A stretch of 43,095 nt of DNA from Syntrophaceae bacterium (GTDB taxonomy: Bacteria > Desulfobacterota > Syntrophia > Syntrophales > Smithellaceae), in the NCBI GenBank assembly GCA_009773315.1, contig WRPE01000025.1, positions 1 through 43,095 of the forward strand, given 5' to 3'. Within the stretch, counting starts at the first letter, position 1. Each line of letters starts with the position of its first letter. The translations under genes and the position numbers were made by a program. This document shows, one piece after another, positions 40,562-43,095 of the stretch. The notes beneath the pieces were generated by a model. That model ran no database searches. It was not told where the DNA came from and saw only the letters and a list, made by a program, of their open reading frames with translations.

Positions 40562-41164
40562 TTATTTAACGCCGGATAACGCAGCTTTTCTTACTACTAA
40601 TTCATCAATTAAACCATAGTCTTTAGCTTGATGACTGGTCATAAAGTAGTCGCGCTCCGTATCATTCATAATTTTTGCCAGTTGCTGACCGGTTAATTCA
40701 GCCAGGATTTTGTTTAATTCGTCTTTTAATCTCAGGATTTCTCTGGCCTGAATGTCAATATCCGTTGCCTGCCCCTGAAAACCACCGAGAGGCTGATGGA
40801 TTAAAATTCGTGAATGCGGCAGGGCATATCTTTTCCCTTTTTCACCGGCCGCCAAAAGAATTGCCGCCATGCTGGCCGCCTGACCCATGCATACCGTGGA
40901 AATTTGAGGTTTAATATACTGCATCGTATCATAAATGGCCATGCCCGAACTGACATGTCCACCGGGCGAATTCAAATAGAAAAAAATCTCTTTATCCGGG
41001 TCTTCGGCTTCCAGATAAAGCATTTGGGCAACAACAACATTAGCGACATTATCGTCGATAGCCGTTCCCAGAAATATAATTCTGTCTTTTAAAAGGCGGG
41101 AATAAATGTCGAATGCCCTTTCGCCTCGACCATCTTGTTCCACCACCATCGGTATTAAATTCAC
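40562..41164 (-). CDS. clpP: ATP-dependent Clp protease proteolytic subunit
   Basis: A 200-residue serine peptidase that assembles into a 14-mer with ClpX. The catalytic triad is Ser98 (G-Q-A-A-S-M), His123 ([10 protein letters not shown]) and Asp172 (E-R-D-Y-F-M). The N-terminus [10 protein letters not shown] is the mature form without a long propeptide. The GTG start overlaps the tig stop by four bases (GTGA). Confidence 0.97.
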
Positions 41165-42486
41165 AGGGCAACCTCACGTTCCATTCCAATTTTTTCAACT
41201 ACTTTAATATTGGCCTCACGTTCGATAAAGTCAAATACCTTTTTCTGGATAATTTCCGATTTTAAAGAGTCCAATCTCTCTTCCTTGTCATATGCGCTCT
41301 TGACCACTTCATAATCCGTGCGGTGAATATTTGCTAGTTCTTTGATATGATTATCAATTTCATCTTCAGAGACCGTAATGGCTTCTTTTTCAGCTATTTT
41401 TTTGAGAAGCAGAAAGGATCTAACCGTTTTTTCCGCGTCCTGCTTGAACTGATCGTGCATGCCAAAACTCAGTTCCATCGCGTTTTTTTCATCCATGCCC
41501 GCGGATTTCATCCTTTTTTGCGTATCCGATATCATATAGAAAATCTGTCGCTCCACCAGTGACGGCGGTGCTTCAAATTCGTTGGCCTTAAGAACGGCTT
41601 CCGTTATTTTATCCCGCAACTGCGAATCGCTCTGGTGCTTGCATTGATCTTCCATTGATTTTCGAACATCATTCTTAAAATCTTCCAAGGTATTATACTT
41701 GTCGAAATTTTTAATGAAGTTTTCGTCGATTTCAGGCAGTTTTTGCTCTTTGAGGCCTTTGATGGTCACCGTAAACACAACATCCTTGCCTGCCATTTTT
41801 TTCTCATGATAATCGTCTGGAAACGTGAGGTTGATCCCCTTTGTTTCGCTGTTTTTCATCCCTACGAGTTGCTCTTCAAAGCCGGGAATAAACCTTTTCG
41901 CTCCCAACTCCAGAAGGAAATTGTCCGATTTAAGCTCTGGAAGCGCTTCACCATTCAGCGTTCCTGTAAAGTCAATGGTTATAAAATCACCCATCGCAGC
42001 TTGCCGATCCTCCGTGACATCCTGCATAGTGGCAAACATCTTGCGGATTTCCTGAAGACGTTTCTCCATGTCTTCTTCCGATACGGAAATGTTTATCTTT
42101 TCTAAGTCAATCCCCTGATAACCTTGCGGTTCAAAGGCCGGTTCCGTTTCAAAAGAGGCGCTGAAAGCAAAGTCCGTGTTTTCCTTCAATCCATCCTGCT
42201 CAATTTCCGGACGGGACAAGGTCACAATTTTACGGTTGTCAAGCTCCTGCCAATAGAATTTGTTGACAATATTGGTAACGGTCTCCCCTTCCGCGTCGGC
42301 CTTGAAATAATTTTCCAGTACCTTACGGGGAACCTTGCCCGGACGGAAGCCTTTTATTTTCGCTTTTTTACTGATGGTCCGGTAAACATTGTCCAGCTCG
42401 TCTTTAACGTCCGCCCAGGGAATCTCAAAAGACATTTTTTTCTTAACCTGACTGATATCCTCCACTTTTACAGAAAGCTCACTCAC
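41161..42486 (-). CDS. tig: trigger factor
   Basis: A 441-residue ribosome-associated chaperone and peptidyl-prolyl isomerase. The ribosome-binding tail signature reads G-F-R-P-G-K-V-P in the N-terminal domain. The FKBP-type domain lies about 155-240 ([17 protein letters not shown]), followed by the long helical C-terminal arms. The GTG start is supported by TAGGAG 9 bases upstream. It begins 41 bases after tRNA-Leu, with no terminator between, and probably shares its transcript. The order tig-clpP-clpX-lon is a classic proteostasis cluster. Confidence 0.96.
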
Positions 42487-42527: not shown

Positions 42528-42614
42528 TGGTGCGAGAGAAGGGACTTGAACCCTTAACCGCGTGTGCGGGCTGGATCCTAAGTCCAGTGCGTCTGCCAAT
42601 TCCGCCACTCTCGC
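42528..42614 (-). tRNA. tRNA-Leu (TAG)
   Basis: An 87-base class II tRNA. Acceptor GCGAGAG pairs with CTCTCGC. The anticodon loop CTTAGGA sits in a TGGA/TCCA stem (anticodon TAG). It has a long variable arm, T-arm AAGGG/CCCTT, A73 and encoded CCA. Confidence 0.96.
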
Positions 42615-42628
42615 CTCTTGGTTATTGG

Positions 42629-42656
42629 ACTATATATGCATTACTCAAAACGTCAA
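42629..42656 (-). promoter_or_regulatory. promoter for tRNA-Leu and tig-clpP-clpX
   Basis: On the minus strand TTGACG (42656-42651) and TATAGT (42634-42629) have a 16-base spacer and lie 15 bases before the tRNA-Leu 5' end. This is a near-consensus sigma-70 promoter. Confidence 0.8.
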
Positions 42657-42762
42657 CGCGGATTATTATCGGCGTACTGCAACAAAACCAATTAAATTAA
42701 GCTTTTCATTGGTCCCGTTCTGTAAATGATAATTCGATTTAATGCAAGAAAAATATTGGAAA

Positions 42763-42807
42763 TGGTCGGGGCGAGTGGATTTGAACCACCGGCCCTCTGA
42801 ACCCCAT
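42763..42807 (-). pseudogene. tRNA-Pro (GGG) 3' half, probable attachment-site scar
   Basis: Forty-five bases match tRNA positions 32-76: anticodon loop ATGGGGT (GGG), the 3' side of the anticodon stem TCAGA, variable loop, T-arm GGTGG-TTCAAAT-CCACT, acceptor strand CGCCCCG, A73 and CCA. The bases just upstream do not pair with TCAGA, and no 5' half (which should start CGGGGCG) occurs in the remaining 288 bases. The break is exactly in the anticodon loop, a common crossover site of tyrosine integrases. The remnant is therefore best read as one end of an integrated element. Confidence 0.75.
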
Positions 42808-43095
42808 CTGTTTACAAGGTATTTTGCAACACAATAGAATTCATTCACTTATTTATTGATACACGAGTGGTAGTCTAAGCAATAGAAAGAAAGGAGTTAG
42901 CCCATCTTTAACACGGCCCAAAAATACTTCAGTAAATACGGCTTGATGGGAGCGATTAAAATTCCTTCTGGCACTACATTTTTGCAAAACGCAGTTTAAA
43001 TCCCGACTTTGACAGTTAAAAAAATAATATTCAGTAAAAATGGCGAGTTACAGCCGCAGATCAAGTTTGTGCCACTACATTTTCATTTTTTGTAA
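42808..43095. other. right-edge DNA without genes; degenerate repeat
   Basis: This stretch has no complete gene. TTCAGTAAA (42928, 43030) and CACTACATTTT (42972, 43073) recur with the same internal spacing (43-44 bases), so a unit of about 101 bases is repeated in degenerate form. A 32-codon plus-strand fragment (42901-42999; K-Y-G-L-M-G-A-I-K-I-P-S-G-T-T-F-L-Q-N-A-V) looks protein-like but is not recognised. It may be the end of an insertion sequence or of the element integrated at the tRNA scar. Confidence 0.45.

What the first reader, a model, noticed from the sequence alone, without database searches (positions are those of the whole stretch)
42763..42900. Half tRNA-Pro(GGG) marks the end of an integrated element beyond the window
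The sequence shows tRNA bases 32-76 with correct T-arm, acceptor strand and CCA, but foreign DNA upstream of the anticodon loop. Integrases of the tyrosine family commonly recombine in the anticodon or T-loop of tRNA genes and leave a 3'-half copy at the distal junction. The housekeeping block stops here and the next 290 bases have no genes, which fits. Prediction: an intact tRNA-Pro(GGG), with an integrase gene close by, at the far end of the element to the right.
Basis: partly seen in the sequence, partly recalled or inferred. Interest (0 to 1): 0.68.

Follow-up and report, generated by a model that had tools for sequence, protein, structure and literature searches.

The report
Scar of an island in tRNA-Pro
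The half tRNA gene at the end of this contig is the displaced end of a tRNA-Pro gene into which a mobile element once inserted; the intact copy lies on another contig beside a broken phage-defence gene, which is an ordinary kind of genomic island.

Summary
Window 42763-42807 (- strand) is the 3' half (positions 32-76, CCA included) of tRNA-Pro(GGG); the window is a whole contig (C68) that stops 288 bases later. A 48-bp stretch (42760-42807) recurs once elsewhere in the genome, inside an intact tRNA-Pro(GGG) near the start of contig C30. Two relatives, G007 and G004, have the uninterrupted site: C68 up to 42807 joined to C30 from 1471 aligns collinearly over about 1.27 kb at 95-96%. So C68's right end and C30's left end are the two outer ends (attL, attR) of inserted DNA. 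Beside the intact tRNA lie the first 240 codons of a DrmD-like (DISARM-type) defence gene cut by IS debris, not an integrase. Same-genus G015 has an 18.9-kb DrmD-type cassette between two tRNA-Pro halves, with no integrase domain found on that contig. Two phage contigs carry a tyrosine integrase beside this tRNA, one of them next to a half whose match ends one base from the window's. The "gene-free" 288 bases are an element arm plus two nested IS ends, which explains the contig break. Verdict: an ordinary tRNA-targeted genomic island, decayed; the predicted integrase was not found.

The parts
42763..42807 (-). 3' half of tRNA-Pro(GGG), positions 32-76 with CCA; the displaced native 3' end
   Evidence: 45/45 identical to intact tRNA-Pro on C30
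42760..42807 (.). attL core, 48-bp direct repeat of C30:1423-1470
42808..42896 (.). left arm of the inserted element; start of foreign DNA
   Evidence: absent from empty sites G007 and G004. First 63 bases: 42 of 63 identical to the arm after the inner half in G015, and related to the G001 arm; no shuffle of 1000 reached either score. Not related to the arm after G015's outer half (557 of 1000 shuffles as good). No match at E <= 0.001 in a search of the 19 same-genus relatives with 42798-42900
42897..42999 (.). end of insertion sequence 1, interrupted by insertion sequence 2
   Evidence: same 105 bp with other flanks at ends of contigs C76 and C72
43000..43095 (.). end of insertion sequence 2 (DDE_Tnp_1 transposase in relatives' copies); contig break. 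Its exact first base is uncertain within 42997-43001
   Evidence: same sequence at ends of C11, C58 and C86; copies in G014 and G007 lead into a 507-510 aa ORF with PF01609
42528..42614 (-). tRNA-Leu(TAG), native flank
   Evidence: within 301 bp of intact tRNA-Pro(GGG) in 13 of 19 same-genus genomes
42629..42656 (-). sigma-70-like promoter candidate for tRNA-Leu, left on the native side
   Evidence: TTGACG-16-TATAGT, consensus scan only; 2 sites found in the region, 1.2 expected from shuffles
41161..42486 (-). trigger factor (tig) ORF, native flank; clpP, clpX and lon-like ORFs follow
   Evidence: names recalled from the sequences

Best explanation
A mobile element inserted into the anticodon loop of the only tRNA-Pro(GGG) gene found in this genome, by tyrosine-integrase site-specific recombination. 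The element's own copy of the 3' half rebuilt an intact tRNA at one end (attR, on C30), still behind its native upstream DNA. The native 3' half was displaced and left at the other end (attL, the window's 42760-42807). A DrmD-type anti-phage cassette lay at the attR end. The inserted DNA has since decayed: drmD is cut after about 240 codons by IS-like DNA, the attL end is filled with nested IS copies, and no integrase is recognised near either end. Shown: the two ends, the 48-bp repeat, the empty site, the intact tRNA, the broken drmD and the IS ends. Inferred: that a tyrosine integrase did it, that the inserted DNA is one element rather than a row of two, and that the integrase was lost, lies in the unassembled gap or acted from elsewhere.
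For: 48-bp exact repeat with the intact tRNA on C30. Joined flanks collinear with the empty sites: 95.8% over 1,276 columns in G007, 95.2% over 1,272 in G004. 13 of 19 same-genus relatives keep intact tRNA-Pro within 301 bp of tRNA-Leu. C30:484-1472 is 92.9% identical to the drmD end of the G015 cassette, which lies between two tRNA-Pro halves. Halves with arms related to the window's in G015 (inner half) and G001. Phage contig L092: integrase ending 28 bp before a tRNA-Pro half whose match ends one base further than the window's. Phage contig L067: intact tRNA-Pro with genus-like upstream DNA and an integrase gene 18 bp past its 3' end.
Against: No integrase beside either end. The DNA between C68 and C30 is not assembled, so size and content are unknown. 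The other 17.97 kb of the G015 cassette are missing from G000 apart from a weak 69-bp match. The window's arm resembles the arm after G015's inner half, not the outer arm of the drmD cassette itself, so the two ends seen in G000 may belong to two elements. No L067-type integrase at E <= 1e-40 sits beside tRNA-Pro in 155 genomes of the order; the 9 found are elsewhere.
Confidence: 0.9

Rival explanations
1. Two or more elements sit in a row at this tRNA: the window's arm belongs to one, the drmD remnant on C30 to another, and a further half tRNA lies in the unassembled gap. The mechanism is the same; only the count differs.
For: G015 has two halves 18.9 kb apart, and the arm after the inner one is related to the window's (42 of 63 bases, 0 of 1000 shuffles as good) while the arm of its drmD cassette is not (557 of 1000). 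Rows of decayed and newer elements are a known pattern (PMC5704250, passages).
Against: Only two copies of the core were found in the G000 assembly. The outer arm in G015 may have been lost by a deletion: the large helicase gene ends about 14 bases from that half.
Confidence: 0.4
2. Misassembly: the half tRNA is a chimeric join.
For: The genome is in 86 contigs and C68 ends in repeats.
Against: Similar halves with related arms occur in separately assembled G015 and G001. The match stops at the anticodon loop, as in phage contigs L092 and L091 within two bases. The C30 partner fits the empty site to the base.
Confidence: 0.02
3. Split tRNA gene or intron: the anticodon-loop break is an intron boundary and the 5' half is nearby.
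For: Some bacterial tRNA introns sit in the anticodon loop (recalled).
Against: A complete uninterrupted tRNA-Pro(GGG) exists on C30. No intron family reached threshold in the window. Relatives have the intact gene at the same place.
Confidence: 0.01

Closest known systems
tRNA-targeted genomic islands as collected in Islander (PMC4383910; part 1 of 3 of the text read)
   Same: An intact regenerated tRNA plus a displaced fragment mark the two ends.
   Different: Islander demands an integrase inside the interval; none is known here, and the two ends lie on separate contigs.
CIME, cis-mobilizable element (PMC5704250; passages read)
   Same: In G015 the cassette keeps an att copy at each side, shows no integrase domain, and lies in a row with a further element arm.
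   Different: No partner element or excision shown; transfer genes were not searched for as such; in G000 the remnant is further broken by IS copies.
DISARM anti-phage system
   Same: DrmD-like SNF2 helicase followed in G015 by a large methyltransferase gene matching type IIG (1393 bits) and DrmMI (426 bits) models.
   Different: The third large gene scores as DruE (344 bits) far above DrmA (48 bits), and no DrmB or DrmC row is shown, so it is DISARM-like, not canonical; in G000 only the start of drmD was found.

Membership tests
tRNA-targeted genomic island | Displaced tRNA fragment as a direct repeat of an intact tRNA | tested here: met
   48 bp exact
tRNA-targeted genomic island | Empty site in relatives (added by me as a check) | tested here: met
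   G007 and G004 collinear across the joined flanks; 13 of 19 same-genus genomes keep the tRNA pair
tRNA-targeted genomic island | Integrase gene inside the element | tested here: inconclusive
   None on C30 or C68; none on G015 contig C177; the middle of the G000 element is not assembled
CIME | attL and attR retained without integration genes | tested here: inconclusive
   Two halves and no integrase domain on G015 C177; interior unknown in G000
CIME | Lacks transfer genes | tested here: inconclusive
   None among the families matched by the 7 G015 proteins scanned against Pfam; no dedicated search
CIME | Mobilised by a neighbouring or co-resident element | not testable with these tools
   needs an excision assay
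DISARM | drmA, drmB and drmC with drmD and drmMI (list recalled) | tested here: not met
   In the G015 cassette DrmD and DrmMI/IIG-like proteins match; the helicase matches DruE best; no DrmB or DrmC among the rows shown (25 of 29 rows shown for the helicase; 4 of the 8 proteins had no PADLOC family)

The most novel reading that the evidence does not exclude
The DrmD-type cassettes at this tRNA are integrase-less defence modules that keep phage-type attachment sites and move with, or compete for, the integrases of temperate phages that use the same tRNA-Pro(GGG) site, so that phage machinery would spread defence against phages.
Probability: 0.12. Interest if true: 0.5.

Novelty: new member of a known kind. 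Interest (0 to 1): 0.2.

Why it matters
It maps, to the base, an island end in a little-known bacterial genus (relative G015 corresponds to an uncultured delta proteobacterium record), shows that tRNA-Pro(GGG) next to tig is a used integration site there, and gives one att-bounded defence cassette (G015) whose mobility could be tested. As a phenomenon it is textbook.

Tried and rejected
Intron or split tRNA: rejected by the intact copy and the empty sites. Misassembly: rejected by similar halves in G015 and G001. Integrase near the intact tRNA: not in the 1,425 bases of C30 on that side. I tested whether C68's last IS is the same copy as the transposase fragment starting C30, which would have made the gap very small: no, the DNA and the transposase families differ.

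Searching the order for relatives of the L067 integrase (E <= 1e-40) gave 9 loci in 8 of 155 genomes; 7 of 9 loci hold a complete tRNA (Thr, a Lys/Arg/His cluster twice, Arg twice, Leu/Ala, Cys/Gly), none of them Pro, which suggests that this integrase line switches targets.

DrmD relatives elsewhere (10 loci besides G015's own; several cut by contig ends): no tRNA-Pro half in the DNA held; one (L083) has an intact tRNA-Gly about 100 bp before drmD but no second copy within 23 kb.

The half in G016:C434 beside an integrase belongs to some other tRNA. The window arm 42798-42900 had no match at E <= 0.001 in the 19 same-genus relatives; its likeness to the G015 inner arm and the G001 arm shows only in pairwise comparison. 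My first reading that all four arms are alike did not hold: the outer G015 arm is not, and I raised the row-of-elements rival and lowered the one-insertion confidence for that reason. Rfam covariance search did not report the half tRNA at all. Williams 2002, the primary source on tRNA sublocations, is not held; I saw only citations of it.

Full report
What is there. The window is the whole of contig C68 of a 2.98-Mb genome in 86 contigs. Its last part reads: tig (trigger factor, - strand; name recalled), tRNA-Leu(TAG) at 42528-42614, a 148-base spacer, the 3' half of tRNA-Pro(GGG) at 42763-42807, then 288 bases to the contig end. ARAGORN sees no tRNA-Pro in the window.

The partner. The 48 bases 42760-42807 occur once more in the assembly, at C30:1423-1470, inside an intact tRNA-Pro(GGG) at C30:1426-1502, - strand. 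Beyond the tRNA's 5' end lie a lytic transglycosylase-like gene, a helix-hairpin-helix protein, an aspartate kinase-like gene and others that read as housekeeping genes (names recalled from the sequences).

The empty site. In relatives G007 and G004, tRNA-Leu, intact tRNA-Pro and the DNA of the transglycosylase-like gene are contiguous. Joining C68 up to 42807 with C30 from 1471 gives a sequence that aligns to G007 (95.8%, 1,276 columns, 2 gap openings) and G004 (95.2%, 1,272 columns, none). Of 19 same-genus relatives, 13 (G002, G004, G005, G006, G007, G009, G010, G011, G013, G014, G016, G018, G019) have intact tRNA-Pro(GGG) 148 to 301 bp from tRNA-Leu. Two (G001, and G015 by way of overlapping contigs C279 and C177) have a half there. 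The other four differ: G008 has about 5 kb with other genes between the two tRNAs, G012 and G017 have them on different contigs, and G003 gave a single match, a half-like stretch at 87.5%.

The element at the intact tRNA. On C30, 1203-1425 is an arm without an ORF of 60 aa, and 484-1202 holds the first 240 codons of a DrmD-like SNF2 helicase (PADLOC DrmD, E 1.1e-70 for the ORF). The rest, to the contig end, is IS-like: ORF 1-426 matches PF13701 over residues 2-100 (E 1.9e-7, below the family's cut-off), and 1-125 recurs at the end of C33. The drmD end with its arm is 92.9% identical to the end of an 18.9-kb cassette in G015, whose contig has the length and DrmD of CAIVDK010000177.1, an uncultured delta proteobacterium. 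There the cassette lies between two tRNA-Pro halves: 38 of 45 bases identical to the intact gene at the outer one, 43 of 45 at the inner one, against 45 of 45 in the window. The G015 cassette reads: a 1,975-aa DEAD helicase with MrfA Zn-binding and S24 domains (closest to DruE), an HTH_3 regulator, a PIN protein, a trypsin-like peptidase, two proteins without a Pfam or PADLOC match, a 1,723-aa Eco57I/type IIG/DrmMI-like methyltransferase, and DrmD (DrmD was scanned against PADLOC, not Pfam). An integrase-domain search of G015 gave 11 matches, none on this contig. Apart from C30:484-1422 and a weak 69-bp match, the cassette was not found in G000, nor at DNA level in the 14 other same-genus genomes that I searched (16 of 20 genomes given; only part of the first-look candidates was scored in many of them).

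The last 288 bases. 42808-42896 is an arm absent from the empty sites. Its first 63 bases are 42 of 63 identical to the arm after G015's inner half and related to the G001 arm (0 of 1000 shuffles as good in each case), but not to the arm after G015's outer half (557 of 1000), nor to the DNA after the L092 half (233 of 1000) or the native tRNA 5' half (357 of 1000). 42897 to about 43000 is an IS end also found near the ends of C76 and C72 with other flanks; about 43000-43095 is a second IS end found at the ends of C11, C58 and C86; copies in G014 and G007 run into a DDE_Tnp_1 transposase ORF. The second IS sits in the first. That is why the contig stops.

The mechanism. Three contigs of the viral collection carry this tRNA end. 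L067 has an intact tRNA-Pro(GGG), 47 bases of upstream DNA like this genus, a tyrosine integrase gene (PF00589) 18 bp past the tRNA, and a terminase-like gene. L092 has an integrase ending 28 bp before a tRNA-Pro half, which is what an attP looks like, plus an endolysin-like protein. L091 has a half amid terminase and tail genes; I did not find an integrase among the four of its proteins that I scanned. The match to the intact tRNA ends one base further than the window's in L092 and two bases further in L091. The anticodon loop as a crossover region of tyrosine integrases, and expression of the rebuilt bacterial tRNA from its original promoter with few exceptions, are established (PMC8371274, passages). 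In C30 and G007 the upstream DNA of the tRNA is nearly identical and holds TTGACA-17-TAATGA by eye; the consensus scan, which demands a final T, did not list it. A promoter-like site before tRNA-Leu stays on the other side (consensus only, near chance level).

The missing integrase. G000 has 8 integrase-domain matches, none on C68 or C30. Of the 8, three have a tRNA in the DNA around them: SeC, Arg(CCG) and Leu(CAA)/Ala(GGC). The inserted DNA is thus a remnant, or its integrase lay in the unassembled middle, or it never carried one.

One element or two. The outer arm in G000 is of the kind seen after G015's inner half, whereas the C30 end is that of the drmD cassette. Either the G000 element is one unit and G015's outer arm was lost, or two elements once stood in a row here as they seem to in G015. 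Reads across the gap would tell.

What it is called. It meets the two-ended signature of a tRNA-targeted genomic island (PMC4383910, part 1 of 3); the state in G015 resembles a CIME (PMC5704250, passages). It is a new example of a known kind. One search for DISARM-type islands at tRNAs (10 of 78 papers listed) and one for islands in this family (8 of 43 listed) showed no title or abstract on this case; I read none of those papers.

Noticed in passing
G000 C80:13614-14105 (L009, L096), C45:31361-31828 (L010), C23:85900-86415 (L008): Three further integrase matches lie near predicted tRNA-SeC, tRNA-Arg(CCG) and tRNA-Leu(CAA)/Ala(GGC), so other tRNA islands may exist in this genome; the C23 one has a stop inside, and the tRNA-SeC call overlaps the end of the integrase ORF.
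   Followed up: partly
L040:197-18873: An 18.9-kb cassette joins a DrmD-like helicase and a DrmMI/IIG-like methyltransferase to a DruE-like helicase carrying an S24 peptidase domain, with a trypsin-like peptidase and two unmatched proteins between them: an unusual mixture of defence parts.
   Followed up: partly
L040:19203-19592: After the inner half and its arm, the G015 contig runs into tRNA-Lys(CTT), while G015's intact tRNA-Pro lies on C334 with a trmFO-like gene on its 3' side: perhaps a rearrangement.
   Followed up: no
L083:9823-10001: In a planctomycete MAG an intact tRNA-Gly(CCC) ends about 100 bp before a drmD relative, the same geometry as here with another tRNA; no second tRNA-Gly copy within the 23 kb held.
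   Followed up: partly
L056:2640-4085: In G016 an integrase lies about 200 bp from the 3' half of another tRNA at a contig end.
   Followed up: partly
L092:7788-8825: The phage contig with the attP-like half also encodes a reverse transcriptase (PF00078).
   Followed up: no
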